Shown in pieces: positions 20,565 through 56,078 of a DNA stretch of 64,000 bases. The position numbers were made by a program, and so were the translations under genes. Source of the DNA: Micromonospora sp. WMMA1363 (GTDB lineage Bacteria > Actinomycetota > Actinomycetes > Mycobacteriales > Micromonosporaceae); assembly GCF_030345795.1 (NCBI RefSeq), contig NZ_JAUALB010000001.1, forward strand, positions 4,518,001 through 4,582,000, written 5' to 3'. The number at the start of each line of letters is the position of its first letter. The stretch's first letter is position 1. Below the pieces are notes generated by a model. That model was not told where the DNA came from, did no database searches, and saw nothing but the letters and a program-made list of their open reading frames with translations.

Positions 20565-20768
20565 TTACGGGTGGTCGGCGAGGCCCTTCTCGTAGGCGTA
20601 GATTACGGCGTGCACGCGGTCGCGCAGGCCAAGCTTCATGAGAATCGCGCGGACGTGTGTCTTGACGGTGTTTTGGGTTAGGTAAAGAGTAGCGCCGATC
20701 TCTCGGTTGGACTGGCCTGCGGCCATCAGGCGGAATATCTCGGACTCGCGCGGCGTCAGTGCTGTTAG
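20565..20768 (-). pseudogene. Response regulator, detached LuxR-type DNA-binding C-terminus
   Basis: The frame reads TALTPRESEIFRLMAAGQSN, REIGATLYLTQNTVKTHVRA and LMKLGLRDRVHAVIYAYEKG, a complete LuxR/FixJ helix-turn-helix ending at 20565. IS701 copy A starts at 20769 and separates it from the receiver domain at 22149-22599. The 4-bp TTAG (20765-20768) is the target duplication. No start codon remains apart from ones inside the IS. Confidence 0.93.
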
Positions 20769-26374: not shown

Positions 26375-26564
26375 GTGAACCACCCCCGGCCCAAGGCCCG
26401 GCTCTCCCGCTCCCTCGGCATCCCGCTGACCCGCAAGTGCGTGCGGTACTTCGAGCGCGCCAGCTCGTCGGGCACGGCCACTTCACCGTCGACGGACGGA
26501 AGGTCGACCGGCCGTCATACCGGTCGTCGAGGTCCGCGCGGTGCCGGTTCCCGAGGCCGCCTAG
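26375..26564 (+). pseudogene. rpsD: Remnant of ribosomal protein S4 (paralogue type)
   Basis: GTG 26375 starts VNHPRPKARLSRSLGIPLTRKCVRYFERA, the start of S4. The next frame resumes only with RARQLVGHGHFTVDGRKVDRPSYR, the S4 RNA-binding motif near residue 120 of the normal 200. A third frame ends VVEVRAVPVPEAA and TAG. About 90 central codons are gone. The sequence resembles alternative S4 paralogues rather than a main-operon copy. IS701 copy B is inserted at the stop codon. Confidence 0.85.
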
Positions 26565-27944: not shown

Positions 27945-28026
27945 CTAGCCGGGCGCGGGCAGCCCGCCGGTGGTTGTCGGCGCCGGGACGCACGATCGTG
28001 CGGCTGCCCGGGGTGCCGGCGGCCCC

Positions 28027-30825: not shown

Positions 30826-31995
30826 ATAGGAGCCTGGCCAGAGGCCCCATCTCTGTCTTGTCCGCGTTGCCCGGCTGGTGCGTGCCGCCCTGCCCCCAGT
30901 CACGAACGACAGGACGACGATGCCTCCCATTACACCCGATGAAGCCGCGATCGAGGTCGTCGGTGGAGTCGACACCCATCAGGACACGCACACCGCGGCG
31001 GTGATCGACCTGGTCGGACGGGTGCTGGGCACCCAGCAGTTCCCCGCCACGCGGGCCGGCTACGCCGCCCTGCTGGCCTGGATGCACGGACACGGCCGGC
31101 TGAGCCGGGTCGGGGTCGAGGGCACCGGCGCCTACGGAGCGGGGCTCGCCCGCGTGCTGCGCGACGACCACGTCGACGTGATCGAGGTCGACCGCCCGGA
31201 CCGCAAGACCCGCCGGTTCCAGGGCAAATCCGACCCGATCGACGCCATCCAAGCCGCCAGGGCGGCCCTGGCCGGAGAACGCACCGGCACCCCCAAGCAG
31301 CGTGACGGCCGCGTCGAGGCCCTGCGTAACCTGCGGGTGGCCCGGCGCAGTGCGGTCGAGCAGCGCGCTGACACCCAACGCCAGATCAAGTCCCTGATCG
31401 TCACCGCCCCCGACGAGCTGCGTGCCCGGCTGCGCGGCCTGACCGTCAAACAGCTGATCGCCACCTGCGCGAACCTGCGCCCCGACCGGGCCGACGCCGC
31501 GACCCCGGCCACCGCCGTCAAGATCGCCCTACGCTCCCTCGCTCGCCGCCACCAGCAGCTCGCCACCGAGATCGCCGACCTGGACGAACTACTGCAGCCC
31601 CTCGTCGCCGCCATCAACCCCGGCCTACTGGCCGCCAACGGCCTCGGCGCCGACACCGCCGGCCAACTGCTGGTCAGCGCCGGCGAGAACCACGACCGGC
31701 TCACCTCCGAGGCCGGGTTCGCCATGCTCTGCGGCGTCGCCCCGATCCCCGCCTCGTCCGGCAAGACCACCCGGCACCGCCTCAACCGCGGCGGCGACCG
31801 GCAGGCCAATGCCGCCATCTACCGCGTCGTGCTCTGCCGCCTGCGCTGGGACCCCCGCACCCGCGCCTACACCGAACGACGCACCAAAGAAGGCCTGTCC
31901 AAGAAAGAGATCATCCGGTGCTTGAAGCGCTACATCGCCCGCGAGCTCTACCAGATCATCACAGCCAACGATCTTGAACTCGCCGCTTGACATCC
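30826..31995 (+). mobile_element. IS110-family element, approximate limits
   Basis: The transposase gene is flanked by the direct repeat ataggagc at 30826-30833 and 31996-32003, the best boundary candidates. IS110 has no classical inverted repeats, and its guide (bridge) RNA normally comes from a non-coding end, so the left limit could lie farther out; gagcacctcccg (30709-30720) and its complement (30783-30794) form a possible hairpin there. Confidence 0.6.
30920..31990 (+). CDS. IS110-family DEDD transposase
   Basis: 356 residues from ATG 30920. RuvC-like DEDD part: VVGGVDTHQDTHTAAVID, RVGVEGTGAYGAGLAR, RRFQGKSDPIDAIQAARA. C-terminal Tnp_20 domain with the catalytic serine motif PASSGKTTRHRLNRGGDRQA. 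Length and motifs are complete, so it is probably active. Its 3' end lies 270 bp from the AfsA-like gene stop. Confidence 0.92.
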   Translation: MPPITPDEAAIEVVGGVDTHQDTHTAAVIDLVGRVLGTQQFPATRAGYAALLAWMHGHGRLSRVGVEGTGAYGAGLARVLRDDHVDVIEVDRPDRKTRRFQGKSDPIDAIQAARAALAGERTGTPKQRDGRVEALRNLRVARRSAVEQRADTQRQIKSLIVTAPDELRARLRGLTVKQLIATCANLRPDRADAATPATAVKIALRSLARRHQQLATEIADLDELLQPLVAAINPGLLAANGLGADTAGQLLVSAGENHDRLTSEAGFAMLCGVAPIPASSGKTTRHRLNRGGDRQANAAIYRVVLCRLRWDPRTRAYTERRTKEGLSKKEIIRCLKRYIARELYQIITANDLELAA

Positions 31996-32262: not shown

Positions 32263-33222
32263 TCACTGTGGCGGTCGGCTCTGCGCTCGGCTGGTAAGCA
32301 CGTTGAGCACAGCGAGTACGGTGCCGCCCTGCACCACCTCGACCGACCGCTCACCGTCAGCCCGGCCTGGTCGGGCGACGAGGCGCACGGGAGCGTCCAG
32401 TTCGACGAACGCATCGAACGTGCCGGAGAGGCCGGTCATCACCGCGGCGGTGGGCTCGGGACTCAGCGCGGCGCCGAGCTGACGGGCCGCCTCGACGAGG
32501 AGTGTTCCCGGGACGTGGTCCTGCCGGTGGTCAAAGAGGCCCAGGTGGTCGAAGGGCAGCAGCATTCGTGCGCTGGTCCCGCCCGAATCGGAACGCAACT
32601 CGGCCAGCAGCACGTCGGCGGTGAGGAACCGGCCGACGGTCGAGGGGGCGACGTGCCCGTCCAGGTACGGGGACAGCTGGTCGGACCAAGGCGGCGGCGA
32701 CCCGCTGCGAGCCCGGCGGCGCAGCACCGTGTAGGTGGCCGGGGAGGCGACCGACGAGGTGATCGCCGTCCATCCGATTCGCACACCGCCCAGTGACAGT
32801 TCGCACCGGGACGTGAACGCGCGGAGCCGGCTTCCGGTTCGGACCACCGACACGTCGACGTGCATCGTCAGCTTGACCGAGCCGCTGTCGGGTCGTTGCA
32901 CGTACGCGTCGGCCGGCACGGACATCTCGCAGGAGCTCATCAGAAAACGGGTGTCTTCGGCCAGGTCGAGGCAGTTGTGGCCGACATAGATGACGACCTG
33001 CCGGCAGGCCTCCAGCAGCAGCATCGGATCGAGACGGCGGTTCGCCTCCGCGGTGTGCGCCGAATAGTACGCGTGTCTCCGGGGCAGCCAGGCCGTAGCC
33101 ACGTATCCGCCCATGCCGTCCGAGCGGACGTCGGCAAGGAAGACGGTGTCAGCGTGGCGGCGATGCACAGCCGCCGGGTCGACGGTTGTGTGGGGTTGGT
33201 TCGGTAGCCGGGTGTCGGTCAT
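32263..33222 (-). CDS. AfsA-type hotdog protein (A-factor biosynthesis-like)
   Basis: 319 residues from ATG 33222, which overlaps the LLM gene stop (ATGA). Two AfsA hotdog repeats are visible: VFLADVRSDGMGGYVATAWL with DPMLLLEACRQVVIYVGHN (about 22-110), and VLLAELRSDSGGTSARMLLP with PGTLLVEAARQLGAALS (about 200-290). AfsA proteins condense a beta-ketoacyl thioester with dihydroxyacetone phosphate to start gamma-butyrolactone signals; related proteins act in other furan and butenolide pathways. Its place as the last gene after an ACP and acyl ligase suggests a product-forming condensation rather than a stand-alone signalling gene. Identity as an A-factor synthase is not proven. Confidence 0.82.
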   Translation of the reverse strand: MTDTRLPNQPHTTVDPAAVHRRHADTVFLADVRSDGMGGYVATAWLPRRHAYYSAHTAEANRRLDPMLLLEACRQVVIYVGHNCLDLAEDTRFLMSSCEMSVPADAYVQRPDSGSVKLTMHVDVSVVRTGSRLRAFTSRCELSLGGVRIGWTAITSSVASPATYTVLRRRARSGSPPPWSDQLSPYLDGHVAPSTVGRFLTADVLLAELRSDSGGTSARMLLPFDHLGLFDHRQDHVPGTLLVEAARQLGAALSPEPTAAVMTGLSGTFDAFVELDAPVRLVARPGRADGERSVEVVQGGTVLAVLNVLTSRAQSRPPQ

Positions 33223-34106
33223 CGGTCGGGTCCTTCCGTGTTCTCGTCGAGCAGTCCCGTGCGGGCGATCGCGGCGAGTGCCTCGAGGTGTTCGTCGAGC
33301 GACGTGAACCCGGCACCGAGCGTGCTCACGGCCAGGTGTGTAGCGCGGGCTTCGCGCCACCGCCGGGCCGCCGCGGCAACCCCGGCCGCGCCGCCGTCGG
33401 TGTAGCGGACCCGGCCGTGCATGCCGATCGCCTCGACGGGCCGACCGGCCGCCTCCGCCGCCTCCGCCACGATCACCCGGGCCGCCGTGAGCTCCGGTCC
33501 GGGCTGGAGGCGGGGCATCCAGCCGTCCCCGGTACGGCCCGCCCGGCGGTACGCTGCCGGGCTGGCACCACCGATCCAGATGGGGATCGGTCGACTCGGT
33601 AGTGGGTTGATGCCGGCCGCGACGATTCGCTCACCGTTGTGATCGAAGTTGACCGACCGATGTGTCCACAGTGCACGCAACAGCGCGATCTGCTGGTCGA
33701 GCCGCTCACCCCGAGATCGCATTGGCCGGCCCAGGGCCTCGTACTCCACCGCGTTCCAGCCGATGCCGACCCCCAGTCGCAGCCGGCCTCCGGAGAGGAG
33801 CTCGATCTCAGCCGCCTGCTTGGCGACCAGCGCGGTCTGCCGTTGCGGCAGGACCAGGACGCCGGTCACGAGGTCGAGGTCGCACACCGCCGCGAGGTAG
33901 CCGAAGAGCACCAGAGGTTCGTGAAACGGATCACCCACGTCATACACACCCTGCCAGCTCGGATGTCCGGCGGGATCGGCACCGAGCACGTGGTCGTACG
34001 CGAGGAGATGCCGGAACCCCAGCTCCTGCACCGCACTCGCGTAGTCGCGTAGGGCTCGTGGACCGCCGTGCAGCTCGCCCTGAGGTAGGACGACTCCGAT
34101 CTCCAT
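33219..34106 (-). CDS. LLM-class F420-dependent (or flavin) oxidoreductase
   Basis: 295 residues from ATG 34106, overlapping the UbiA stop by one base (TGATG). Luciferase-like barrel: MEIGVVLPQGELHGGPRAL, GFRHLLAYDHVLGADPAGH, VTGVLVLPQRQTALVAKQAA, LLSGGRLRLGVGIGWN, then PIPIWIGGASPAAYRRA and DGWMPRLQPGPEL. The TGVLVLPQRQ bulge and GVGIGWN motif are typical of F420-type LLM enzymes. Probable role: reduction or oxidation of a pathway intermediate, e.g. a double bond after the AfsA-like condensation (inference). Confidence 0.88.
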   Translation of the reverse strand: MEIGVVLPQGELHGGPRALRDYASAVQELGFRHLLAYDHVLGADPAGHPSWQGVYDVGDPFHEPLVLFGYLAAVCDLDLVTGVLVLPQRQTALVAKQAAEIELLSGGRLRLGVGIGWNAVEYEALGRPMRSRGERLDQQIALLRALWTHRSVNFDHNGERIVAAGINPLPSRPIPIWIGGASPAAYRRAGRTGDGWMPRLQPGPELTAARVIVAEAAEAAGRPVEAIGMHGRVRYTDGGAAGVAAAARRWREARATHLAVSTLGAGFTSLDEHLEALAAIARTGLLDENTEGPDR

Positions 34107-35014
34107 CACCCGAGCAACCCACCGGTGACGAGCGTCGCGTCCAGGACGATCACATAGAGCATGGCGAGCGACGTGGGCCACTTCCGCTCCCGGCCCCTCA
34201 GGTAGGAGAAGGCGCCCGCGATCGGGAAGACGAGAGCCACGTAGGGTAGAAGTGCTGTGACCGACACGTGCCACGGCTCGGTGATCGCGGTCAGTAGGGC
34301 GCACGCGAGCAGAGCCCAGCCGAGCGTGAGCACGCCACTGCCGGTGGCGCCGAGCGCGGTGGCCGAGTACGTCCGGGCCCCCGGGTGGGGGTCGCGTACG
34401 GTCTTGCGGGCGAATTCGTAGTGCAGGAACGCGGCGGCGAACACAATGATCAGCAGGACTGGGTGGGCTCCCGGCCGTACCAGCGCCGTGCCGGTCACGG
34501 ACATGTACAGGTAGACGCCGATCAGCAGTTGCACCGGGTACGCCACGACGATGTAGAGCAGCGCCCGGTCACGCAGCCTCGGCAAGCGCAGTGTGAGCCG
34601 GGTGAGTAGCTCGGTGTAGCCCACGAGGACCGCCACCGTCACCGCCGACCAGGGGGCGAGTGGAACGTTGACGACGATCGCCAGGGCAGCCGCCGCCCAC
34701 CCGGCCCGGCGCAGCTCGATCACGCTGACCAGACCGGTGACCAGCGGACGGGTCGGGTTGTGCACCCGGTCGTACGACTCGTCCATCCGCTCGTCGGCCA
34801 GCCGCAGGTAGAGCAGGACCACGATGATCGTCGTGGCCCGGACCAGCGACCCGGTCGACGGCCGCCAGGCGCCCCCCGCTGCGGTGACCGCAGCGGCCTC
34901 GTACGCACACGCCCACAGCACTCCGTAGGCGACGTGTACCCCCGGCGCGAAGACAGCGCCGAGAAACGCGCGGTAGCGCAGCAGCGCCGGGGCCTGCCCG
35001 ACGGCGCCGTTCAT
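34106..35014 (-). CDS. UbiA-family membrane transferase
   Basis: 302 residues from ATG 35014 (ATGA overlap with the NDK-like gene). Eight to nine hydrophobic helices. First Asp-rich motif D74-ERM-D78-ESY-D82 followed by HNPTRPLVTGLVS, the DxxxDxxxD pattern of UbiA enzymes where Mg2+-diphosphate binds. The second polar loop is FLHYEFARKTVRDPHPGART, in the YxxxK-D style. UbiA proteins move a prenyl or other activated group from a (di)phosphate to an acceptor in the membrane. In this operon the donor could be a phosphorylated or nucleotide-activated intermediate made by its neighbours; the chain length of the donor cannot be read from the sequence. Confidence 0.82.
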   Translation of the reverse strand: MNGAVGQAPALLRYRAFLGAVFAPGVHVAYGVLWACAYEAAAVTAAGGAWRPSTGSLVRATTIIVVLLYLRLADERMDESYDRVHNPTRPLVTGLVSVIELRRAGWAAAALAIVVNVPLAPWSAVTVAVLVGYTELLTRLTLRLPRLRDRALLYIVVAYPVQLLIGVYLYMSVTGTALVRPGAHPVLLIIVFAAAFLHYEFARKTVRDPHPGARTYSATALGATGSGVLTLGWALLACALLTAITEPWHVSVTALLPYVALVFPIAGAFSYLRGRERKWPTSLAMLYVIVLDATLVTGGLLG

Positions 35015-35991
35015 GACGCCGCCACGGTGGCCAGCGCCCGCCACGGGCCGGGATCGGCTCCGGCCAGCAGCTGTCCGTACTGCGGGTGGGAAAGCGGTAC
35101 CGCGTGGCTGCCCACCACGATGAAATCCCAGCCGGTCAGCGGCAGGTCCGCCGACCAGATCATGTTGACCAGTGGCCCCCAGCTCGCCGGCTCGTCGGTC
35201 GCCGAGGCCAGCTCGGCGGCCAGCGTTTGGCGTACCTCGTCCGGCAGGGCCGCCGTGGCGAGGAGTTCCTCCACGGCCCTGGTCAGGCGGCGGGTCGAGG
35301 CAACGAACTCCAGGTCATGTGGGGGGTGCTCGGCGTACAGTTCCCGGGCGAGCGTGGTCGTCTGATCGTGCCGGTCCGTGTTCGCCAGCGCCTGGCCGAC
35401 CAGTGCGCGGCGGTCCCGGTGCTCGAGCAGGATGCCAAGCTCCCGGACGAGATCGGCCGGCTCGTCGGAGGCGTGCACCAGGTTGAGCAGGAAGCCGAAA
35501 TCGCCGAGCCGGGTCCGTAGCTGGCCTGGGCGGCGCCGCACTGGATCGGCCGGCCCCTTGTCGATGCTGAGCGCCACCGTGGCCGGCACATCGACGGGTT
35601 CGGTGGGGCGTAACAGAATCACCAGTGAGTCGGACTGCCCGCACAGCGCGTCGGCAAGTAGACAGCGTTGGGGTGTCGCGCGGTTCAGCTGGTAGTGCCA
35701 GATCGCACGGACCGTTTCACGGCGCATGTGCAGCCGCCGGGCCGCCACGATCCGGAAGCTCTTCTCGCTCAGCCATTCGGTGGCGCGCTCGATCGAACGC
35801 GACGCCACCGCGTCCGGCTTCATCAGCAGCATGGCGTGCTCGTACGCGAATCGCACCGGGTCGGGTGTCAGCGCGGACAGCTGCTCGTACGCCTCCAGGA
35901 AGTAGCTGTCGGTGCCGTGACGACGCTGCTTGCCCGGATCGTGGGTCAGGCCTTCGGGGAACGGCGGCCCGTAGGCCGCGATGCCACTCAC
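35011..35991 (-). CDS. Nucleoside-diphosphate-kinase-like protein with C-terminal extension
   Basis: 326 residues from GTG 35991 (GTGA overlap with the reductase stop). Residues 52-190 follow the NDK fold: HAMLLMKPDAVASRSIERAT with Lys58, a RIVAARRLHM strand, and FGFLLNLVHASDEPADLVRE, where His173 matches the phospho-histidine of N-I-V-H-G-S-D. The normal tight GxIRGDF segment is changed to QLRTRLGDF, and an N-terminal 50 and C-terminal 135 residues are extra (NDK is usually 140). It is therefore a divergent kinase, probably acting on a pathway phosphate rather than on housekeeping NDPs. Function by homology only. Confidence 0.75.
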   Translation of the reverse strand: MSGIAAYGPPFPEGLTHDPGKQRRHGTDSYFLEAYEQLSALTPDPVRFAYEHAMLLMKPDAVASRSIERATEWLSEKSFRIVAARRLHMRRETVRAIWHYQLNRATPQRCLLADALCGQSDSLVILLRPTEPVDVPATVALSIDKGPADPVRRRPGQLRTRLGDFGFLLNLVHASDEPADLVRELGILLEHRDRRALVGQALANTDRHDQTTTLARELYAEHPPHDLEFVASTRRLTRAVEELLATAALPDEVRQTLAAELASATDEPASWGPLVNMIWSADLPLTGWDFIVVGSHAVPLSHPQYGQLLAGADPGPWRALATVAAS

Positions 35992-37088
35992 CGCTGGTTG
36001 ACCCGGCTCAGGGCGTCCGCCACACTCTGCAGAGGTGCGCCGAGGTAGCCAGCACCGACCGCGTAGTCGATGATCCGCCGCAGGTGGTTCGGCCCGCTGG
36101 GCAGTCGCTTGTGTACCCGAAACTCGGCTGCGGTGGCGTCGTCGAAGTGCTGCCGACGGCGGAAGTAGCTCTCGTACAGCGACATGACCCGGTGCCAGTA
36201 GCCACACTCGAGGTCCGGCAGCGTGGCGGGGTCGAAGGTGGCCGGCGCGATGTAGCGGGGAACGTGGAAGGACGGGTACTCGGCGAGCACATCGGAGATG
36301 TGACGCATCCGTACTGACGCCCCCACCGCGTGCAGCGTGCGGCCCCGGGCACGGGCGAAGTCGTCGACCACCGCGGTGATCAGCGCCGCCACGTGGTCGA
36401 CCGGCACGAGGTCGACGCAGGCGTCGAAATAGCCCGGGATCGCGCTGATCCGGCCTTCGGACAGGAGCTTCAGCACGACGTACAGGTTCTTGAAGTCACG
36501 GACCACGCCGGTGCGGGCGGCGCCGACGACGACGCTGGGCCGAATCACCACGGTCGGCAGGCTGTCCGTGGCGGCCTTGCGCACCAGCTGTTCCGCGGCG
36601 AGCTTGCTCTCCTCGTACGGGTTGCCGAACCGCTGCCCGACGTCGAGCTGGGACTCCAGGACGGTGCCCTCCCGCTCGCCGCACACGTACGCGGTGCTGA
36701 CGTGCACCAGCGGGGTGGACCGCTCACGGGCCAGCTCCAGCACGTGGGCCGTGCCGGTCGTGTTGATCGCCTGGTAGGCCTCCCGGGGCCGGCCGAAGTC
36801 GGTGATCGCAGCGGAGTGCACGATCAGGTCGAGCCCGTCCGCCAGGTCCGTCCAGGTGTCGTCGTCGAGGCCCAGCCGCGGGACGGTGACGTCTCCGGTG
36901 ACCAGCCGCACGGTGTCCGCCCGGTCGTCCGCCGCCGACGCGACGACCCGGCCGCCGTTGGCGATCAGCACTCGGGTGGTGTGTACCAGGCCGGACACTC
37001 GGTGCCCGGCCTTCAGCAGGCGGGCGCAGATCTCGGCGCCGACCAGGCCGGCCGCCCCGGTGACCAGGATCCGTTTCGGCTCGCTCAT
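35988..37088 (-). CDS. Extended SDR, thioester-reductase/NAD-epimerase type
   Basis: 366 residues from ATG 37088 (ATGA overlap with ACP stop). Rossmann start RILVTGAAGLVGAEICARLL (G11-x-x-G14-x-x-G17), LIVHSAAITDFGRPREAYQ, PLVHVSTAYVCGE with Ser/Thr131-132, and the catalytic Y158-x-x-x-K162 in NPYEESKLAAEQL. IRPSVVVGAARTGVVRDF and the helical C-terminus resemble thioester reductase (TD/male-sterility) proteins. Being next to the ACP gene, it may release the acyl chain from the ACP as aldehyde or alcohol. A sugar-type epimerase is a less likely alternative. Confidence 0.83.
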   Translation of the reverse strand: MSEPKRILVTGAAGLVGAEICARLLKAGHRVSGLVHTTRVLIANGGRVVASAADDRADTVRLVTGDVTVPRLGLDDDTWTDLADGLDLIVHSAAITDFGRPREAYQAINTTGTAHVLELARERSTPLVHVSTAYVCGEREGTVLESQLDVGQRFGNPYEESKLAAEQLVRKAATDSLPTVVIRPSVVVGAARTGVVRDFKNLYVVLKLLSEGRISAIPGYFDACVDLVPVDHVAALITAVVDDFARARGRTLHAVGASVRMRHISDVLAEYPSFHVPRYIAPATFDPATLPDLECGYWHRVMSLYESYFRRRQHFDDATAAEFRVHKRLPSGPNHLRRIIDYAVGAGYLGAPLQSVADALSRVNQR

Positions 37089-37345
37089 GCCCTTCCTCCG
37101 GTGTTCAGCTGCCGGCGAACCAGGTTCAGGACGTCTCCGGCGGTCGTCAGGTCCGTCGACTCGCTCAGGTCGAGCGAGGGCAGCCGGAACTGCCGTTCCA
37201 GGGCCATCGCCAGCTCGATCAGCCGGATCGAGTCGAACATCAGGTCGTCGCGCAACCGGGTCTCCGCCCCGACTCGTGGGAGTGGGTGCGGCGCCATCGC
37301 GGCGATGATCGCGTAACCGGTCGGTTCGTCGAACGCGTCGTCCAT
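37085..37345 (-). CDS. Acyl carrier protein
   Basis: 86 residues from ATG 37345 (one-base overlap with the preceding stop, TGATG). Four-helix ACP pattern with LRDDLMFDSIRLIELAMALE; Ser39 in D-S-I is the phosphopantetheine attachment site. LDLSESTDLTTAGDVLNLV is the usual third/fourth-helix part. It is the only carrier protein in the operon and the expected acceptor for the acyl group activated by the adjacent ligase (39015-40700). No phosphopantetheinyl transferase is nearby. Confidence 0.9.
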   Translation of the reverse strand: MDDAFDEPTGYAIIAAMAPHPLPRVGAETRLRDDLMFDSIRLIELAMALERQFRLPSLDLSESTDLTTAGDVLNLVRRQLNTGGRA

Positions 37346-39018
37346 CACGTCTCCTGTGTTGCGGCGCCGGTCCGTGCGTGCGGCTGTACACCGCCGCTGG
37401 AGAGCAGGTCCTGCGCCTCGTCGAGGGGGAGTTGCTGGTCCAGATATGCGCCGAGGCGCAGCAGGTCGTAGCCGATGTCGAGGGTGCGCTGCCAGCCATC
37501 CGCGGAGTCGAACGACGACGGGAACGCCTCTCCGCCCGAGGCCGACCGGATCTCGGTGATGTACTCCCGCAGGAGCGTGAGCAGACGCCGGGCGTCCTCC
37601 TCGCTGGTAGCCACGGTCGCGTACAGCCGTTCGGCGAGGACCCGGATCTGCGGGTACGTGCCGGGCAGCAGATCGAGTCGGGGCAGCAGCTCGGGATCGG
37701 GCGGCAGCGGGCTCACACCGTGCGCGCTGAGCAGGGCACGCAGCCCGCCGTTGACCGCACGCGCCGTGGTGAGCGCAGCGACCCCCCACTGTTTGCGGTC
37801 GAGTGCGCCCTGAAGATCCTCCATAGCATTCTCGATCATGAAATTTCCCCACATCAGTGCCATCGCGGCGGCGGCGAAGCGCGGCGCCGGCAGCGGTAGC
37901 AACGCGATCGCGCGGGGGTGCGGCGGCTCGGCACCGGCGAGGCCCAGGATCGGGCTGCTGATCGCCGGAGCGGGGGTGACGGCGCCGAGCGGCGCGGCCA
38001 TCGGGAGCCGCGGCGAGATCGGGACCCCCCGCCAGGTGATCCGGATCAGGCCGTACCGGAGGTAGGCGGCGATCAGCTCACCCGCATCGGCGACGCCGGT
38101 CCGCTCGGCGTCGGCCCTCAGTTCCGCGAGCGGTCGCCCCCAGACGACGCGCCGCCACACCCGCCTGGCGGCGTCGCCGAGGACAAAGACGTCACGGCGG
38201 TCACGTACCAGATGCACCTGGTCGTCGATTTGCCAGGTGGTCACTGCCGGCGCCCGGGCCACGACCAGCCGCTGCGGATCTTCGGCACAGCCGGGCACAC
38301 CGAGCTCCGCGACCAGGCGGATGCAGTCCCGCGTGTGCTCGGTCTGCCCACCGGCGTCGGGCTCCGCGTTGGTGATCTGCCAGTAGCGTTCGACCAGCGG
38401 ATTCCCGACGAGCCGGTCGAGCTGCAGCGAGAGCCACTTCGGCTCGATGTACGTCTCGCCGTGGCGTGCCAGGTAGCTCTTGGCGGCCTGCTCGAGCCCC
38501 GCCCGCGCCCACACCGCGGCCGACTCCACCTGATCCAGGGCGAGTAGGGCAACGGAGTGCCGGATGGACTGCCGCGCGTGCTCCGCCCACCACCGGGTCA
38601 TGACGGCGGCGAAGTCGTCGTACGCGAGGTGGTCGCGGATCTTCCCGACCAGGTCCGGGCGGTGCACGACGTGCGCCCGGAGCAGCCGTTGACACCGGTT
38701 GAGCAGGTGCTCGTCCAGCGCAGCGATACGGCGCGCGGTGCGTCCGACGTAACCGTTGACCTCCTGGAGGTGGTCCACGATCTGGCCGACGGACCGGGTG
38801 CGGATTTCCACCCGCCGCCCGTCGATGAAGAAGATCGTCGGCATCGTCGGCAGGTCGGCCTCCTGATCGGCGACCAGGAGGAAGTCGATGTCGGAGCGCG
38901 AGTTGCCGAAACCCTCGGCTATGGAGCCCTCCAGGACGAGTGCGGCACTCGCGGGGTGACCGACACGCTCCAGCGTCTGGGTTGCGAGTGATCTGATCTC
39001 GGCCTCGTCGAGGATCAC
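37345..39018 (-). CDS. Nucleotidyltransferase with helical and PqqD-like sections
   Basis: 557 residues from GTG 39018 (GTGA overlap). Residues 27-50, LVLEGSIAEGFGNSRSDIDF, carry the full polymerase-beta-type motif: G31-S32 and D43-x-D45. A HEPN-like helical part follows (about 145-210, SVALLALDQVESAAVWARAG). Residues about 262-328 (WQIDDQVHLVRDRRDVFVLG, RRVWRRVVWGRPLAEL) resemble PqqD-type peptide/substrate-binding domains. The last 200 residues are helical again. I know no standard family with this order. It may adenylylate or nucleotidylate a small molecule or the carrier-bound intermediate; that is inference from the intact catalytic residues. Confidence 0.75.
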   Translation of the reverse strand: MILDEAEIRSLATQTLERVGHPASAALVLEGSIAEGFGNSRSDIDFLLVADQEADLPTMPTIFFIDGRRVEIRTRSVGQIVDHLQEVNGYVGRTARRIAALDEHLLNRCQRLLRAHVVHRPDLVGKIRDHLAYDDFAAVMTRWWAEHARQSIRHSVALLALDQVESAAVWARAGLEQAAKSYLARHGETYIEPKWLSLQLDRLVGNPLVERYWQITNAEPDAGGQTEHTRDCIRLVAELGVPGCAEDPQRLVVARAPAVTTWQIDDQVHLVRDRRDVFVLGDAARRVWRRVVWGRPLAELRADAERTGVADAGELIAAYLRYGLIRITWRGVPISPRLPMAAPLGAVTPAPAISSPILGLAGAEPPHPRAIALLPLPAPRFAAAAMALMWGNFMIENAMEDLQGALDRKQWGVAALTTARAVNGGLRALLSAHGVSPLPPDPELLPRLDLLPGTYPQIRVLAERLYATVATSEEDARRLLTLLREYITEIRSASGGEAFPSSFDSADGWQRTLDIGYDLLRLGAYLDQQLPLDEAQDLLSSGGVQPHARTGAATQET

Positions 39019-40700
39019 GCGGGAACCCCCGGTTCGACGATCGCGGCTTTCAGGGTTCCCTCCTGTAGGTGCTGCCACATCCCACGACGGCGTGGCTTAC
39101 CGCTGGTGGTGCGCTGGATCAGGCCGCTGCCGCCAACTGCGAACCGGATTCGCGGATCGTGCCCCAGGCGGGAGCGCAGGGTGTGGTAGGCGCTTTCCTC
39201 CCAGCCGTGGCGCTCGCCCTCGACGAGCACCAGGACGCCGGCACGTTCGGTCTCCGGTGCGCTGATCACCACACAGCGGTTGGCGGGCAGGCCGGTCGCC
39301 TCGACGACCGCCGCCTCGAGGTCCTCGACGTAGACGTTGCGCCCCCGGATCTTGAGGCTGTCGCCCATCCGGCCCAGTACGAACAGCTGGCCGGCGTGTA
39401 GGAAGCCGGCGTCGCCGGTGCGCAGGCCATCCCGGGTGAAGCGGGTGCCGCCGGAGTCGGCGTCGTTGGTGTAGCCCGCGGTGACCGTTTCCCCGCTGAC
39501 TCTGATCTCACCGAGTCGGCCCGGCGGCAGCTCGACGCCGTCCTGGTCAACGATGCTGATCCGGGTGTCGAGGCGTGGGCCGCCGCAGCCGGTCAGCCAA
39601 CCGGCGCGCGTCGACACCGGCTCCTCGCCGAGGTGGAACTGCCGGGTGAGCTCGACCTGGTGGCCGAATCGCAGAGCGTCCGGCCTCACCTGCACCACCA
39701 GCGGAGGCACACCAGGGTCAGTGCCGGTCACCCCGAGCGTCGTCTCTGCCATCCCATACGCGGGGGTGAACGCGCTGCGGTCGAAGCCCGCGGCGGCAGT
39801 GGCCTCGACAAACTTGTCGAGCACCGCGGGGTCGATGGTCTGCGCGCCGACGAACGCGGTCCGCCATCCGGAGAGGTCCCAGCCGGCGATGCGCTCGGCG
39901 GAGATCCGCTCCACCGCGTACTCGTACGCGAACGGAGGCGCGGCTGTGATCGTGGCCCGGGTCATGCACTCCAACCAGCTGCTCGGATCGCGCAGGAACT
40001 GCGCGGGCCGCATCAGCCACAGGTCTGCCTGACTACAGACGGCGGTGAGTAGGGTGCCGATGAGGCCCATGTCGTGATAGAGCGGCAGCCAGGTCGCCAT
40101 CGAGTCGTCCTCGCTCCAGGCACTCCACGCCCGGGTGCAGGAGACGTTGACGGCGAGGTTCCGCCAGGTGACCGGCACGCCCCGCGGGACGCCGGTGGAG
40201 CCGGAGGTGAACTGTAGGATCGCCAGGTCGTCGGGGCCCGCTTTGGACACCTCGATTGGTTCCTCGGCCTCGCCGTGTAGGAAGGCGCGGCCGGACAGGT
40301 CCGCCGTGGCCAGAGCCAACTCGGCCAGGTCCTGGTATCGCTCGGTGGTGACCATCAGAGCCGGTCGGGCACGACGCAGGATGTTCGAGACGAGCTCGAC
40401 GTACTCGGTGCTGCGGGTGAGGCTGGGTGGGGTGATCATGCAGGGGGTGAGGCCCGCGGCCCAGGCCCCGAAGTACGCGCAGAGCGTCGGGTAACTCGTC
40501 GGCATGAGCAGGCAGACCACATCTCCGGGCTGGGCGCCGGCAGCGGTCATCGCCGCCGCACTGCGCCGGGCCGCGAGAGACAGGTCCGCGTACGAGTGGT
40601 AGTCCCAGCTGTCCCCTTCGGCAAGGAACCGGACCCCCTTGTCCGGCCGGGGATCGACCAGCCAGTCGCGAACATCGCTGAAATCCAGGGTGGTGGTCAC
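39015..40700 (-). CDS. Fatty acyl-AMP ligase (FAAL-like ANL enzyme)
   Basis: 561 residues from GTG 40700 (GTGA overlap). P-loop LQFTSGSTGVPRGVPVTW (residues 162-179), WLPLYHDMGLIGTLLTAV, FTPAYGMAETTLGVTG, then GRLGEIRVSGETVTAGY, LRTGDAGFLHAGQLFVLGRM and the hinge SLKIRGRNVYVEDLE; C-terminal TTSGKPRRR supplies the catalytic Lys. LPLYHDMGL and the YxEDLE hinge are hallmarks of FAALs, which activate acids as adenylates and transfer them to an ACP, here presumably the ACP two genes downstream. The acid is unknown. Confidence 0.9.
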   Translation of the reverse strand: MTTTLDFSDVRDWLVDPRPDKGVRFLAEGDSWDYHSYADLSLAARRSAAAMTAAGAQPGDVVCLLMPTSYPTLCAYFGAWAAGLTPCMITPPSLTRSTEYVELVSNILRRARPALMVTTERYQDLAELALATADLSGRAFLHGEAEEPIEVSKAGPDDLAILQFTSGSTGVPRGVPVTWRNLAVNVSCTRAWSAWSEDDSMATWLPLYHDMGLIGTLLTAVCSQADLWLMRPAQFLRDPSSWLECMTRATITAAPPFAYEYAVERISAERIAGWDLSGWRTAFVGAQTIDPAVLDKFVEATAAAGFDRSAFTPAYGMAETTLGVTGTDPGVPPLVVQVRPDALRFGHQVELTRQFHLGEEPVSTRAGWLTGCGGPRLDTRISIVDQDGVELPPGRLGEIRVSGETVTAGYTNDADSGGTRFTRDGLRTGDAGFLHAGQLFVLGRMGDSLKIRGRNVYVEDLEAAVVEATGLPANRCVVISAPETERAGVLVLVEGERHGWEESAYHTLRSRLGHDPRIRFAVGGSGLIQRTTSGKPRRRGMWQHLQEGTLKAAIVEPGVPA

Positions 40701-43354
40701 GCGGACGTCCCATCCGTGTCGTGGAGGATCGTGATCGTGCCGGTGCCGCCGTCCATCCGGACCGTCATCCCGGTTTCCAGCTCCCGGGTGGCGCCCTTGG
40801 CCTTGACGATCGTCGGTACGCCCAGCTCGCGTGCCACGATCGCGACGTGGGTCAGCGGGCTTCCACGCTCGATGATCAGTCCGGTCGCCGACGGTAGTGC
40901 GGCGACCCAGCCCGGGTCGGTGCTGTAGGCGACGACGATGCCGCCGTTGACGTTCTGCGGTCGCGTCGTGACGACGACCCGCCCGGTCGTGGTGCCCGGG
41001 GACGACGGCGTCCCGCGCAGCTCACGGACACCGGTGCGGGTGGCCCGGCCGACGGTCCAGCCGGCGGCCTCGAGGTTGCCCGCCCAGTAGGGTGCGCCGT
41101 ACGTCCGGAAGCGTGGTGGCGCGAACATCTTTGCCTGTCGCTCCCGGGTGCGCCGACGCGCCGCCACGATGTCGCGCAGCTCGTCGTGAGCGATCTTGCC
41201 CTCGTATGCCCCGGCGAGTTCGTCGAGGCGTAGCAGGAACACGTCCTCGAACCGCTCGATTGCCCCCACCTGCTGCAGGTGCCGGCCGAGTGAGCGGAGC
41301 ATCTGCTTGGCCGACCCGAACGCCCTCGTCCGGCAGAACCGCAGTCGCTCGCGCGCCGCCAGTGACCGTGACACCTTGCGGCGGGCCAGTTCGTAGATCC
41401 AGCGTCGTGGCCCCCGCAGGTGCTGGTCAAGATACTCCTGCGCCCTGTCGTCCCCGGCTGCTTCCGGCGGAGCCTGTAGCGCGTCGCGCAGCATCAGGTA
41501 GAGGCTCGACGGATCCTCGTGCAGGTCCGGCACCTCGAGCTTGAGTTCGTCGGGGCTGCGGTAGCCGTGCGCCTTCACGTAGCCGTCGACCGCCGCGAGC
41601 AGGGTGGTGTGCCCGGCAGCAGCGAGCGCGGCGGGGATCGCCGCCGGATCGGTCTCCGTCACCAGGCGGCGCAACTCGTCGTCGGCCTTGACGGTGGCCG
41701 CTAGCGCGGCCAACTCGCGGGCCGGCTCGGCGGACTCGACGTCGGCGCCGGGCCGGGCGGCGGCCCAGGCCAGCCACTCGGGGGCGTGTGGGAGCCAGCG
41801 CCGGCCGAGCATCGTGAGGACACCCATCGACAGCAGAATCGTGGAGTCGAGCATCTGCATCGGACCCCACCGCCTGTTGAGGCCACGGATCAGGTCCTGG
41901 AACGCCCGGTACACCTCGTCGGCGGGCATCGCGGCGTAGTCGCGCTTGTCGAAGACCGCGTACTGCTCGTAGAAGTACGTGATGAACCGCTGGACGTCAC
42001 GGTCCATGCGGAAGTACTTCCAGAAGAAGGTCGCGCAGGTGATCAGTCGTGCGCGCCGGCGTTCCCACGCCGAGTCGAACTCGTACGGGTACAGCCCCTC
42101 GGCGATCTCATCGGGCAGCGCCTCGTCCACGCCCATGGCGACCTCGAGCAGCTTGCGGTTGACACCGTAGAAGGGCGCGATCCGCTGGAGGCGATACCAG
42201 TTGATGAGGTTGTAGTAGACGCGGCCGTGGAAGCTGCCGAGTAGCGCGGGCAGCCATTCGTGCATCTGCGCGAGCTGCCTCTCGGGAACGCGTAGCGAGC
42301 GCGCGTAGCTCTCGTACACCGCGCCGTAGACCGTCGAGGCAAAAGTGAAGGTCAGCGGGGACGTGATCCCCCGAAAGCTCTCCACGATGTTTGAGTTGTC
42401 CCAGATCCGCAGCTCGCCTACGGGCCCGGCCGTGGCCGGCACAGTGGTGATCGGACGGCTTTGCAGGATCCACAGCTGGCCGTCCGCGACCGCCCACTCG
42501 ATGTCCTGCGGCGCGCCGAAGGCGTCGCTGATGGCGCGGCCTGCCTCCCGCAACGTGCCGAGGTCGACCCGGTCGAGTGACAGCCCCGCACGATCGGCGT
42601 CCGGCACCTCGACGACGTCGACACCGCCGCCGGCTGCGGGCTCGTACCGCTCCGACTTGTCGCCGATCTCCGTTTCCAGAACCGCTCCGGTGACCGCGTC
42701 GAGGGTCACGGTGTCCGCATCCACAGCGCCGGAGACGATGCCCTCGCCGAGGCCGTAGACAGCGCTGACCACGTACCGGTCGCCGGCACCGGTCGTCGGA
42801 TCGGCGGTGAACATCACACCGCTGACCTCCGAGTGGACCATCTGCTGGACGAGCACACCCATGCCGGTCGTGCGTAGCGACAGGCCGTTGCGCAGCCGGT
42901 AGGTCAGCGAGCGGGCTGAGAACGCGGATGCCCAGCAGTCCTTGACCCGGTCGAGGACCTCGTCGGCCCCGGTCACGTTGAGGAAGGTGTCGAACTGGCC
43001 GGCGAAGGAGTACTTGTCGCCGTCCTCCTCCAGACCGGACGAGCGCACGGCGACACTGCCGCCGCCTGCGGCACGGTACGCCGCCTGGATCGGGTTGGCG
43101 AGATGGTCCGGGATGACGGTCGCCCGCATCCGTCGGATGACCTCGGCCGCGACGCGCTCCGGTTCCTCCTCGGCACCCGTCAGCAGTACGTCGATGTCGT
43201 CGACATATTCCAGGAAGGCGGCGAAGACGTCACTGGGAATTGCGCTCCAGCGCGGAACAAGAACGCCAAGACGCCTCATCGCCGCCAGATTGGACGCCTT
43301 GGCACCCATAGTTCGCCATTCCATGATGTCGGTTTCGCTGGCGGCAGTTGACAA
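40697..43354 (-). CDS. PEP synthase/PPDK-like phosphotransferase
   Basis: 885 residues if TTG 43354 is the start: AAGGAGGAAGG (43355-43365) directly precedes it, whereas the in-frame ATG at 43390 has no signal. N-terminal ATP-grasp: MGAKASNLAAMRRLGVLVPR, SVAVRSSGLEEDGDKYSFAG, SGVMFTADPTTGAGDRYV and QLWILQSRPITTV. A middle region of about 430 residues (GITSPLTFTFASTVYGAVYE, YYNLINWYRLQRIAPFYGV) resembles rifampin-phosphotransferase-like proteins. The C-terminal swivel domain has the catalytic His in ERGSPLTHVAIVARELGVP. So it likely transfers the beta-phosphate of ATP through His to a small molecule. The PEP/pyruvate barrel of true PEP synthase is absent. First gene of the operon. Confidence 0.85.
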   Translation of the reverse strand: MSTAASETDIMEWRTMGAKASNLAAMRRLGVLVPRWSAIPSDVFAAFLEYVDDIDVLLTGAEEEPERVAAEVIRRMRATVIPDHLANPIQAAYRAAGGGSVAVRSSGLEEDGDKYSFAGQFDTFLNVTGADEVLDRVKDCWASAFSARSLTYRLRNGLSLRTTGMGVLVQQMVHSEVSGVMFTADPTTGAGDRYVVSAVYGLGEGIVSGAVDADTVTLDAVTGAVLETEIGDKSERYEPAAGGGVDVVEVPDADRAGLSLDRVDLGTLREAGRAISDAFGAPQDIEWAVADGQLWILQSRPITTVPATAGPVGELRIWDNSNIVESFRGITSPLTFTFASTVYGAVYESYARSLRVPERQLAQMHEWLPALLGSFHGRVYYNLINWYRLQRIAPFYGVNRKLLEVAMGVDEALPDEIAEGLYPYEFDSAWERRRARLITCATFFWKYFRMDRDVQRFITYFYEQYAVFDKRDYAAMPADEVYRAFQDLIRGLNRRWGPMQMLDSTILLSMGVLTMLGRRWLPHAPEWLAWAAARPGADVESAEPARELAALAATVKADDELRRLVTETDPAAIPAALAAAGHTTLLAAVDGYVKAHGYRSPDELKLEVPDLHEDPSSLYLMLRDALQAPPEAAGDDRAQEYLDQHLRGPRRWIYELARRKVSRSLAARERLRFCRTRAFGSAKQMLRSLGRHLQQVGAIERFEDVFLLRLDELAGAYEGKIAHDELRDIVAARRRTRERQAKMFAPPRFRTYGAPYWAGNLEAAGWTVGRATRTGVRELRGTPSSPGTTTGRVVVTTRPQNVNGGIVVAYSTDPGWVAALPSATGLIIERGSPLTHVAIVARELGVPTIVKAKGATRELETGMTVRMDGGTGTITILHDTDGTSA

Positions 43355-44295
43355 CCTTCCTCCTTGGACAGTGTGTTGGTCGATCGACATGTGGCGTCCG
43401 GCCGGGCGCGCCAACGGCAGGCGTGGCGACCGCCCTCCCGCACGAATGTCGGCAGTTCAAGCGGCTCTTTGTTGAATGGCGAGCACATGGATCCGTGGCG
43501 CGAATCCGTGTTCGTCGTACGGGATACGAATTCGCGAGCCGGCCGGTGCGACGGATGGGCTGGATCAGCGCGCGTCGCCAGCGGTCAGCCGGTTGATCCA
43601 ACCTTGGATCTTGTGGTCTCGGGTGCTGTCTTGGTTGGCTCGCCTGACGCGGGTGATGTTACCTGCCAACCCTGGGTGTCTACGTCCACTCTGCAGTCCC
43701 CGTAACTGCGGCGCGCGTTACGAGGGTGGTGAGATTTCCGCGCAAACGAGGTCTCATGTTGCTTCCTCTTCGGTTCTGCGCAGGTCAGGGGGAGTCGGGG
43801 TTGACGTCTCGTATCGAACAGAAGGCCGGTTATCGACGGCGCGACCGCTTGTAGGTTCCGCTATCCGGTACCCGGCTCCCTTGTGGCGTGAATTGCTTCC
43901 GATTGCAGCATGCCTGCACTGATACCCGTCGAGGGTAGTAAGGGCATCGGTGCTCGCGATGAGGGAATATTACAGCGAACCCTCTTCGGGTTCTAACCGC
44001 CTGCCGATGCTGGCGAAGTTCTCTTGTTTCAGGCTCTACATTGCAGCAACAAAGGCTTCACGAAACTTCACGCTAGGTGATCCTGTGAAGGGTTTGCAGA
44101 AGGCGGGGGATGGTCGTCCGACACGAACAGTAACTACTTAACGTCGGGTGACCTGTGTCACTGTAGCGTCGTCGTCTCTCGTGCAGGTCGCCGGGGCTCA
44201 CCCAGGGCGTTCACAGGAATACGATTTGTTCTTCGGGTGATCACCACGGCACCCGCTACTGAGCCGATCTCAGTGACTTCGTGGTCGGAACCCGT
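43355..44295. promoter_or_regulatory. Long leader/promoter region of the nine-gene operon
   Basis: About 940 bp without a credible gene, AT-richer than the rest, between the operon start and ISKra4 copy 2. Two palindromes stand out: GATCCAA-cc-TTGGATC at 43596-43611 (perfect) and gaaccc-tcttc-gggttc at 43977-43993. The direct repeat cttcacg occurs twice near 44055-44075. The operon promoter and any operator must be here. Short frames such as 43950-44141 lack codon bias and start signals. Confidence 0.5.
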
Positions 44296-44304: not shown

Positions 44305-45962
44305 GGGTGCGGCTCTGGTGAGGTGCGGCGACACGCTGTGTGGCCTGGGGATGTGTTACTGGTTGTGATGGTGAAAGGGATCCTCCCGCTATGTTCGTCG
44401 GTTGCGAGACACGAACATCAGCAAAGAGGGAGCCCGGTGCAAGAGTACGCATCCGAGACGGCGGACGATGCTTTCGCCGGCTCATCCGTGCGGTTCGGCG
44501 CGATGGTGGACTTCCTGTCCGGTGAGCATGCGGCGGGGATGACTCACGCCGAACTGGAGGAGCGGCTGCATACCGATGGCATGCGGTTGCTGTGTCAGTT
44601 GTTGCAGGACAGTCTGGATCTTCGTGCCAGTCGGGAGGAACGGCTCGACGAGGTGACCGACGCCGATAGCCATCTGCGGGGGTGGGCCGAGCGGGGGCGG
44701 CAGCGGACGCTGGCCACCCGGTTCGGTGAGGTGGTGGTGACGCGTATCGCCTACCGGGCGCGGGCGCGGGCCGATCTGAACCCGGCGGACGCGGTGTTGA
44801 ACCTGCCCGTGGAGAAGCACTCGCATGGACTGCGCCGGTTGGCCGCGGCCGAGGCGGCCCGCGGCTCGTTCACCGACGCGGCGGCCGCGATTGAGCGGGC
44901 CACCACGGTGCGTATCGGGAAACGGCAGGTCGAGGCGTTGGCCGCCGCAGCGGCGATAGATGTGGATGCCTTCTACACCGCCCACGCCCCGGACTGGTCG
45001 GCCGATGATGATGTGCTGGCGTTGTCCTTCGACGCCAAAGGGGTGGTGATGCGCCCCGACGGGCTCCGCGCGGGCACCGCCAAGGCCGCGGTCAGCCAGA
45101 AACTGGCCGGCCGCCGGTCCAAGGGCGAGAAACGCAACCGCAAGCGGATGTGCGAGGTCGCCGCGGTCTTCGACGTGACCGGCAAGCCGCGCACCATCGC
45201 CGACATCCTGCCCGAGGACCCCGAAGCGGCCCAAACTGCTACCCCGGCGCCGGTCACCTCCGGCAAGTGGCTGCACGCCAGCGTGACCGACGACGCCGCG
45301 GCGGTGATCGCCGCCGGGTTCGCCGAGGCCGACCGCCGCGACCCCGACCACGCTCGGACCTGGATCGCCCTGGTCGACGGCAACACCCACCAGATCGACC
45401 GGATCCACGCCGAGGCCAAAACCCGCAAGATCACCTTGCCGGTTGTTGTGGACTTCATCCACGTCATCGAGTACCTCTGGAAGGCCACCTGGTGTTTCCA
45501 CCCGGAGGGCGACCCGAACGCCGAACGGTGGGTCCGCGCCCAGGCCCGGCAGGTGTTGGCCGGACGGGCCGGCATAGTCGCCGCAGCCATCCGACGCAAG
45601 GCCACCTACCACGGCCTGGACCCCGGCAAACGCAAACCCGCCGATGTCGCCGCCGCCTACCTGCTGGCCAAAAAACCGTACCTGGACTACCCGACCGCGC
45701 TGGCCAACGGGTGGCCGATCGCCACCGGGGTGATCGAAGGCGCCTGCCGCCACCTGGTCAAAGATCGTATGGACGTCACCGGCGCTCGCTGGGGCCTCGA
45801 CGGCGCCGAAGCAATCCTCAAACTCCGCACCCTGATCAGCAACGGCGACTTCGACCAGTACTGGACCTGGCACCTGGCCCAGGAACAACAACGCATCCAC
45901 AACAGCCGCTACCTCGGCGGTGCCATCCCACAATAGACGATCACCTCAGAGGAGCCGCACCC
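44305..45962 (+). mobile_element. ISKra4-family insertion sequence, copy 2 (complete, 1658 bp)
   Basis: Same ends and length as copy 1; 9-bp duplication attcgaatt at 44296-44304 and 45963-45971. Same orientation as copy 1, 42.4 kb away. Confidence 0.96.
44437..45936 (+). CDS. ISKra4-family transposase (copy 2)
   Basis: 499 residues from GTG 44437, preceded by GGGAG as in copy 1; the two proteins are identical. See 420-1919 for domains. Confidence 0.92.
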   Translation: MQEYASETADDAFAGSSVRFGAMVDFLSGEHAAGMTHAELEERLHTDGMRLLCQLLQDSLDLRASREERLDEVTDADSHLRGWAERGRQRTLATRFGEVVVTRIAYRARARADLNPADAVLNLPVEKHSHGLRRLAAAEAARGSFTDAAAAIERATTVRIGKRQVEALAAAAAIDVDAFYTAHAPDWSADDDVLALSFDAKGVVMRPDGLRAGTAKAAVSQKLAGRRSKGEKRNRKRMCEVAAVFDVTGKPRTIADILPEDPEAAQTATPAPVTSGKWLHASVTDDAAAVIAAGFAEADRRDPDHARTWIALVDGNTHQIDRIHAEAKTRKITLPVVVDFIHVIEYLWKATWCFHPEGDPNAERWVRAQARQVLAGRAGIVAAAIRRKATYHGLDPGKRKPADVAAAYLLAKKPYLDYPTALANGWPIATGVIEGACRHLVKDRMDVTGARWGLDGAEAILKLRTLISNGDFDQYWTWHLAQEQQRIHNSRYLGGAIPQ

Positions 45963-46036
45963 ATTCGAATTGGGCCGGGTGCCAGGGTCCCGGCAAAGAT
46001 GCCGAGGAGGGCCGGGGGGTGTCCCTATGGGTTTTG

Positions 46037-53229: not shown

Positions 53230-53233
53230 TTAG

Positions 53234-56018: not shown

Positions 56019-56078
56019 CGACGACCCTTACGAGGGACGACACCATGAGTGGCACGAAGCTATCCGAAATCGCCTTAA
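56019..56078 (+). repeat. Duplicated 5' end of the amine oxidase gene (first copy)
   Basis: The 60 bases 56019-56078 recur at 56171-56230 with one change (agtggc versus agcggc). The unit holds the ribosome-binding region, the ATG and 11 codons (MSGTKLSEIAL). In this upstream copy the frame ends after 12 codons at TGA 56081-56083. Period 152 bp. Confidence 0.9.

What the first reader, a model, noticed from the sequence alone, without database searches (positions are those of the whole stretch)
32263..43354. Nine-gene fully overlapping operon with an unfamiliar combination of enzymes
Seen: PPDK-like phosphotransferase, FAAL-like ligase, nucleotidyltransferase/PqqD-like protein, ACP, SDR reductase, NDK-like protein, UbiA-like protein, LLM oxidoreductase and AfsA-like protein, with all eight junctions overlapping by 1 or 4 bases and no lesion. 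Known: FAALs load ACPs, AfsA joins beta-ketoacyl chains with a triose phosphate, UbiA acts on (di)phosphate-activated groups. Inferred: an acyl-ACP is reduced or condensed, and phosphoryl/nucleotidyl transfer activates an intermediate for a membrane transferase, giving a lipid-like or butenolide-like product. I know no described pathway with this set.
Basis: partly seen in the sequence, partly recalled or inferred. Interest (0 to 1): 0.92.

Follow-up and report, generated by a model that had tools for sequence, protein, structure and literature searches.

The report
Salinipostin (spt) operon, non-Salinispora copy
The nine overlapping genes are a copy of the spt operon with which marine Salinispora bacteria make salinipostins, hormone-related antimalarial lipids, so the gene set is real and looks intact but is already described.

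Summary
In detail: nine genes on the minus strand, 43354 to 32263, with all eight junctions overlapping by 4 or 1 bases and families as named. "No described pathway" is wrong. Each of five such genomes searched has one AfsA protein, in this operon. A published table gives the S. tropica cluster "spt, butyrolactone, salinipostin" as RS20900-RS20940, 11.1 kb. So this is the spt operon in a relative outside Salinispora, among insertion sequences. Best mechanism: AfsA makes a butenolide phosphate, the LLM enzyme reduces it, FAAL, ACP and thioester reductase supply a fatty alcohol, and PPDK-, NTase-, NDK- and UbiA-like enzymes join them as a cyclic phosphotriester; that last stage is inferred. Added here: a recurrent core in 44 related loci and an aminoglycoside-adenylyltransferase-like fold for the least understood protein. 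Verdict: new member of a known kind.

The parts
40697..43354 (-). PPDK/PEP-synthase-like phosphotransferase (885 aa), ATP-binding plus phosphohistidine domains; H836 in the PLTH motif
   Evidence: Pfam PF01326, PF00391; NCBIfam NF004881 1414 bits, also PigC/RedH-like; H836 conserved
39015..40700 (-). FAAL-type acyl-AMP ligase (561 aa)
   Evidence: PF00501; several FAAL models among the 25 of 94 shown, all under their cut-offs
37345..39018 (-).
   Evidence: weak Pfam; model pLDDT 87; matches to ANT(4'')/KNT for residues 1-242 and HEPN for 378-498; G31 S32, D43, D45, E71 conserved
37085..37345 (-). Acyl carrier protein (86 aa), S39 in the DS motif
   Evidence: PF00550, ACP models under their cut-offs, D38-S39 conserved in 17 rows
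35988..37088 (-). Thioester-reductase-like SDR (366 aa)
   Evidence: PF07993; TIGR01746 140 bits, under cut-off 213; Y158/K162 conserved
35011..35991 (-). NDK-like protein (326 aa): NDK fold plus helical N- and C-terminal parts
   Evidence: PF00334; model pLDDT 89.8, NDK hits TMt 0.71-0.83 in the 50 rows shown; H173, N170, R159, K58 conserved
34106..35014 (-). UbiA-like membrane protein (302 aa)
   Evidence: PF01040 2.3e-07, below its cut-off; D74, D78, D82 and E200, K204 conserved in at least 95% of 44 rows
33219..34106 (-). F420-type LLM oxidoreductase (295 aa), proposed butenolide-phosphate reductase
   Evidence: TIGR03619 258 bits over cut-off 166.9
32263..33222 (-). AfsA/ScbA-type butenolide-phosphate-forming enzyme (319 aa, two hotdog halves); the only AfsA protein found in this genome
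   Evidence: PF03756 1e-51; NF041195 190.5 bits, cut-off 200; genome search
43355..44262 (-). Upstream region alignable to Salinispora: about 89% up to 43583-43618, about 69-72% from 43664-43725 to 44196-44262; holds the palindrome GTGACACAGGTCAC at 44148-44161
44305..45965 (+). Insertion element-like repeat just upstream, 100% identical to 288-1948 (551-aa frame, UPF0236 match under its cut-off)
30878..31990 (+). IS110-type transposase gene just downstream of the operon

Best explanation
This is an intact ortholog of the Salinispora spt operon, which makes salinipostin-type bicyclic enol phosphotriesters and (recalled) also free gamma-butyrolactones. Proposed route. (1) AfsA joins a short beta-ketoacyl thioester to dihydroxyacetone phosphate, giving a butenolide phosphate (known for AfsA). 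(2) The F420-type LLM enzyme reduces the butenolide double bond (inferred). (3) FAAL activates a fatty acid and loads the ACP; the thioester-reductase-like SDR releases it as aldehyde or alcohol (inferred from families and gene pairing). (4) The lactone phosphate is activated, most likely as a nucleotidyl or pyrophosphoryl derivative by the ANT-like nucleotidyltransferase and the NDK-like kinase; UbiA joins it to the fatty alcohol at the membrane; the PPDK-like enzyme supplies the second phosphoryl activation that closes the ring with the enol oxygen (inferred; order and division of labour uncertain). Identity with spt: about 0.95. Step 1: about 0.95; steps 2 and 3: about 0.75; step 4 as drawn: about 0.3.
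For: Nine-gene order, 78-92% protein identity, overlap pattern and span shared with six Salinispora-type loci. One AfsA protein per genome in 5 of 5 Salinispora-type genomes searched, three named through their loci and two unnamed, each in this operon. Published S. tropica table: spt, butyrolactone, salinipostin, RS20900-RS20940, 11.1 kb. spt is one of nine experimentally characterised clusters in PMC8609351, with 112 strains of 7 species in its table. The product class is a cyclic enol phosphate with an alkyl ester, thought related to A-factor (passages). [quoted passage not shown] Active-site residues conserved. FAAL and ACP are found in the same 17 of 44 loci. Folds: NTase residues 1-242 like small-molecule adenylyltransferases; NDK fold.
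Against: No paper that gives the spt gene list could be read (not held), so the gene-by-gene match to spt1-9 is indirect; the 'nine-gene spt operon' wording is recalled. No product is known for this strain, and PMC8609351 did not detect the spt product in its Salinispora cultures. Step 2: an LLM match was found in only 8 of 44 loci; step 3: a FAAL/ACP pair in only 17 of 44. Step 4 rests on families and folds alone; UbiA is under its Pfam cut-off, and an unactivated alkyl chain is not an ordinary UbiA substrate.
Confidence: 0.93

Rival explanations
1. The operon's product here is only a free gamma-butyrolactone hormone; the phosphotriester branch is not used or the compound differs from salinipostins.
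For: AfsA is present; A-factor-type lactones share the first steps (recalled; structural relation noted in passages).
Against: All nine genes are intact with conserved active sites; a plain butyrolactone needs no FAAL, PPDK-, NTase-, NDK- or UbiA-like enzyme (established A-factor pathway, recalled). No ScbR-type receptor over the cut-off in the own genome, but none in G181 or G296 either, so this does not discriminate.
Confidence: 0.05
2. The operon is spt, but in the last stage the UbiA-like enzyme transfers an alkyl group from an alkyl diphosphate (alcohol phosphorylated by the PPDK-like, then the NDK-like enzyme) onto the lactone phosphate, rather than joining an activated phosphate with a fatty alcohol.
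For: UbiA aspartates D74, D78, D82 conserved in at least 95% of 44 rows; PPDK-like gene in 42 of 44 loci that were chosen by NDK, UbiA and AfsA.
Against: Non-allylic primary alkyl diphosphates are poor electrophiles (general chemistry); leaves the nucleotidyltransferase, found in 43 of 44 loci, without a role.
Confidence: 0.2
3. A new pathway unrelated to any described one.
For: Unusual family combination; literature searches by family names alone found nothing.
Against: Same operon in Salinispora, where the only AfsA protein found lies in it and the published butyrolactone cluster is spt.
Confidence: 0.02

Closest known systems
spt (salinipostin) cluster of Salinispora (Amos 2017, Kudo 2020, Creamer 2021: recalled or seen as citations, not read)
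   Same: All nine genes, order, overlaps, span of about 11.1 kb, 78-92% protein identity
   Different: Host is not a Salinispora; it sits among insertion sequences, and within the flanks fetched no flanking gene is shared except short matches in L103
spt-like clusters of Actinoplanes, Streptomyces, Streptantibioticus and Antrihabitans (L007-L044, L047, L058)
   Same: PPDK, NTase, SDR, NDK, UbiA, AfsA
   Different: Of 44 loci (Salinispora included) FAAL and ACP in 17, LLM in 8, amidohydrolase and LCM methyltransferase in 13
A-factor type gamma-butyrolactone pathway (AfsA, BprA; recalled, named in a passage)
   Same: AfsA step
   Different: No BprA was searched for; the operon has an LLM enzyme and further enzymes that A-factor does not need
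PigC/RedH and Rph ligases/phosphotransferases
   Same: ATP-binding plus phosphohistidine layout, no C-terminal PEP barrel found by Pfam
   Different: Best model is NF004881, a different subgroup

Membership tests
spt / salinipostin cluster | Nine genes in the Salinispora order | tested here: met
   6 of 6 Salinispora-type loci match in full
spt / salinipostin cluster | Lies at the genome's AfsA (butyrolactone) locus, about 11.1 kb, nine locus tags | tested here: met
   One AfsA protein per genome in 5 of 5 Salinispora-type genomes, in this operon; published table RS20900-RS20940, 11.1 kb, nine tags if numbered in fives; span 11,092 bp here
spt / salinipostin cluster | Gene-by-gene identity with published spt1-9 | not testable with these tools
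   Papers not held
spt / salinipostin cluster | Strain makes salinipostin | not testable with these tools
   No metabolite data
AfsA (PF03756) | Two hotdog halves over the Pfam cut-off | tested here: met
   174.9 bits over 24, 2 stretches
ScbA/BarX equivalog (NF041195) | Over curated cut-off of 200 bits | tested here: not met
   190.5 bits
PEP synthase proper | C-terminal PEP-binding barrel | tested here: not met
   Only PPDK_N and the PEP-utilizers mobile domain found by Pfam at 0.01, although NF004881 'phosphoenolpyruvate synthase' is met at 1414 bits over 883
NDK family (PF00334) | Fold and catalytic His in NxxHxSD | tested here: met
   57.1 bits over 27; H173 conserved; fold match
Housekeeping NDK equivalog (NF001908) | Over cut-off of 155 bits | tested here: not met
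   33.9 bits
UbiA (PF01040) | Over Pfam cut-off of 34.2 bits | tested here: not met
   30.8 bits, though the aspartate motif is conserved
ANT/KNT-like nucleotidyltransferases | GS motif, DxD and a third carboxylate; NTase fold | tested here: met
F420-dependent LLM (TIGR03619) | Over cut-off of 166.9 bits | tested here: met
   258 bits

The most novel reading that the evidence does not exclude
The PPDK-like, ANT-type NTase-like and NDK-like enzymes with a UbiA-fold membrane transferase form a portable phosphotriester-making module, in which UbiA makes a phosphate ester bond instead of a prenyl transfer and two successive phosphate activations build a cyclic triester. Actinomycetes combine it with different acyl-loading, reducing and methylating genes.
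Probability: 0.3. Interest if true: 0.6.

Novelty: new member of a known kind. Interest (0 to 1): 0.22.

Why it matters
It shows that an operon which looked like an unknown pathway is the salinipostin hormone/antimalarial lipid operon in a host that is not Salinispora, perhaps moved between lineages. The comparison of 44 loci separates recurrent genes from swappable ones, which narrows the enzymes that must make the rare phosphotriester bond and says which residues to mutate.

Tried and rejected
Literature searches for this family set without the compound name found nothing. A viral-contig scan with the NDK-like protein found nothing. The papers that should hold the spt gene list are not held. 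Searches listed no paper; one search listed two reviews that I did not open; one search listed two papers whose passages cite Creamer 2021 only in the text or reference list. Searches listed 17, 53 and 30 papers; of these I saw passages of PMC8609351 (and its section 6), PMC7888443, PMC12224297, PMC12838356, PMC11095149 and PMC6681047, and no other.

Errors of mine: I gave the antisense translation of the PF00562 match as query, so that ranking reflects DNA similarity only; the housekeeping rows for gyrA, recA and rpo used wrong frames and are dropped, redone; G181 has no PF00562 row there. The KS, SCP2 and 152-aa columns are not used.

Rows: of 64 loci, the 44 with matches to NDK, UbiA and AfsA were counted, so 44 of 44 for these three is by choice. 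The 20 others (L045, L046, L048-L057, L059-L066) were dropped: they have the NDK-like gene with at most weak matches to others (L045, L053, L054 NTase; L056 FAAL; L064 FAAL, SDR and PPDK; L066 no match). L013 and L027 are contig-end fragments, which accounts for the core genes missing there. Absence of FAAL, ACP and LLM means no tblastn match at 1e-5, not proof of absence.

A promoter and terminator scan gave no more sites than shuffles. The PDB profile search with the NTase alignment gave only Talin at 0.0048, taken as chance. The ScbR receptor model found only sub-cut-off matches. The VIA-align list leaves residues 243-376 of the NTase protein barely tested. A protein search with the UbiA-like gene gave relatives, one named UbiA prenyltransferase family in Salinispora mooreana, and changed nothing.
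Full report
Observation. The window holds nine open frames on the minus strand, 43354 down to 32263, and every one of the eight junctions overlaps by 4 or 1 bases. The first gene starts at a TTG preceded by AAGGAGGAAG.

Identity. A search with an alignment of the NDK-like protein gave 64 loci in genomes with titles. Four of them (Salinispora mooreana, pacifica, cortesiana, oceanensis) carry all nine genes in the same order. Protein identities are 78-92%, spans 11,092 to 11,101 bp (window: 11,092), and the overlap pattern is [4,4,1,4,4,4,1,4] in five and differs at the last junction in the sixth. The AfsA family occurs as one protein per genome in 5 of 5 Salinispora-type genomes searched, and it is the one in this operon; the window's own genome also has one AfsA protein only. 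A published table of the clusters of S. tropica CNB-440 lists "spt, butyrolactone, salinipostin, RS20900-RS20940, 11.1 kb" (PMC7888443, passages seen); that is nine tags if numbered in fives. The contig of G181 has 5,183,331 bases, which I recall as the size of the S. tropica CNB-440 chromosome. A second paper treats spt as one of nine experimentally characterised clusters, with 112 strains of 7 Salinispora species in its table (PMC8609351, section 6 read); it did not detect the spt product in its own cultures (passage). I recall that Kudo and others (2020) speak of a nine-gene spt operon that makes both salinipostins and butyrolactones; neither that paper nor Creamer and others (2021) is held. 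The equation with spt is therefore strong but not gene by gene from print.

Host and history. The window's genome (6.48 Mb) is in a genus-level group with the Salinispora-size genomes. Of 160 genomes searched in that group, 7 have the operon's nucleotidyltransferase gene: the window's own and six of 5.2-5.9 Mb. At fourfold sites the operon is 0.80-0.81 identical to four Salinispora-type loci, against 0.68-0.69 for gyrA, 0.70-0.71 for a second gyrA-type gene, 0.76-0.78 for recA and 0.80 for an RNA polymerase fragment; the last value equals the operon's, so the contrast is not uniform. The two genomes ranked closest in the polymerase fragment (G355, G341, confirmed in frame) are not among the 7. 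In the flanks fetched (up to about 4.4 kb upstream and 3 to 7.7 kb downstream of the Salinispora-type operons) DNA similarity ends with the operon and its upstream region, apart from two short matches in L103. The operon lies between an IS110-type gene (30878-31990) and a 1,661-bp element at 44305-45965 that is identical to 288-1948. Together this suggests, without proving, transfer or recombination between lineages.

Comparison of relatives. In 44 spt-like loci, chosen because they match NDK, UbiA and AfsA (rows dropped are told under Tried and rejected), NTase and SDR were found in 43, PPDK in 42, FAAL in 17, ACP in the same 17, LLM in 8, and an amidohydrolase and a leucine-carboxyl-methyltransferase-like gene in the same 13. 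The core genes missing are in two contig-end fragments. So PPDK, NTase, SDR, NDK, UbiA and AfsA form a recurrent core; fatty-acid loading and butenolide reduction look exchangeable. Residues conserved in at least 95% of rows include PPDK H836, NTase G31 S32 D43 D45 E71, NDK K58 R159 N170 H173, UbiA D74 D78 D82 E200 K204, SDR Y158 K162 and ACP S39. FAAL and ACP rest on 17 rows each, LLM on 9, the others on 42 to 45.

Mechanism. AfsA and dihydroxyacetone phosphate give a butenolide phosphate (known for the family; passages). Salinipostins are cyclic enol phosphates with an alkyl ester on phosphorus, fused to a lactone (PMC6681047 passages). The ring-junction hydrogen calls for a reductase; the F420-type LLM is my candidate, the only other reductase of the operon being the thioester-reductase-like SDR. 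In the 36 of 44 loci without an LLM match another reductase would have to act. FAAL, ACP and SDR can turn a fatty acid into aldehyde or alcohol. The remaining four proteins must provide two phosphate activations and a membrane step. I favour nucleotidyl or pyrophosphoryl activation of the lactone phosphate by NTase and NDK, ester formation at UbiA, and ring closure helped by the PPDK-like enzyme, whose relatives PigC and RedH activate a substrate by phosphoryl transfer (recalled). The rival is alkyl transfer from an alkyl diphosphate. Neither is shown.

Verdict. Ordinary as a discovery of a pathway, good as a dereplication: a new member of a known kind, with useful comparative constraints on a chemical step that I know no published solution for (recollection; the searches named above do not settle it). 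Interest 0.22.

Noticed in passing
window 288-1948, 20761-22151, 26561-27947, 30878-31990, 44305-45965, 46037-47020, 47198-48529, 48684-50450, 51847-53241: The window is crowded with insertion elements: three copies of a DDE_5 element at about 99.7-99.8% identity, two identical 1,661-bp repeats (UPF0236 match under its cut-off), two IS110-type genes, one IS4-type and one DUF772-type transposase gene.
   Followed up: partly
L010, L011, L012, L014-L016, L022, L023, L025, L034, L036, L044, L058: 13 of 44 spt-like loci have matches to an amidohydrolase and a leucine-carboxyl-methyltransferase-like gene; the methyltransferase could make a methyl phosphate ester as in cyclophostin (inference).
   Followed up: partly
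L045, L046, L048-L057, L059-L065: The NDK-like family also occurs without AfsA and UbiA matches in Photorhabdus, Paracidovorax, Bradyrhizobium, Candidatus Burkholderia (leaf-nodule symbionts, recalled) and others; in L051 a frame with a P-loop-like start lies directly before it (seen by eye). Function unknown.
   Followed up: partly
window 44148-44161: Palindrome GTGACACAGGTCAC in a block conserved upstream of the operon; the longer pattern is found in L003, L004, L006 and L103 and in the window's own L001, but not exactly in L005 or L104. Possible regulator site.
   Followed up: partly
G341, G355 (L152, L156, L157, L161-L164): Frames with gyrA-type and recA matches are much longer than in the other three genomes searched (1260-1261 and 731-797 residues) and match in two pieces, as inteins would give.
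   Followed up: no
window 59306-63946: A BTAD/NB-ARC regulator gene next to a frame with PP-binding, thioesterase and MFS matches, possibly the edge of another secondary-metabolite cluster.
   Followed up: no
window 55154-57606: HTH-cupin regulator gene followed by a flavin amine oxidase gene; 55227-55731 resembles a stretch downstream of the operon in L103 (68%).
   Followed up: no
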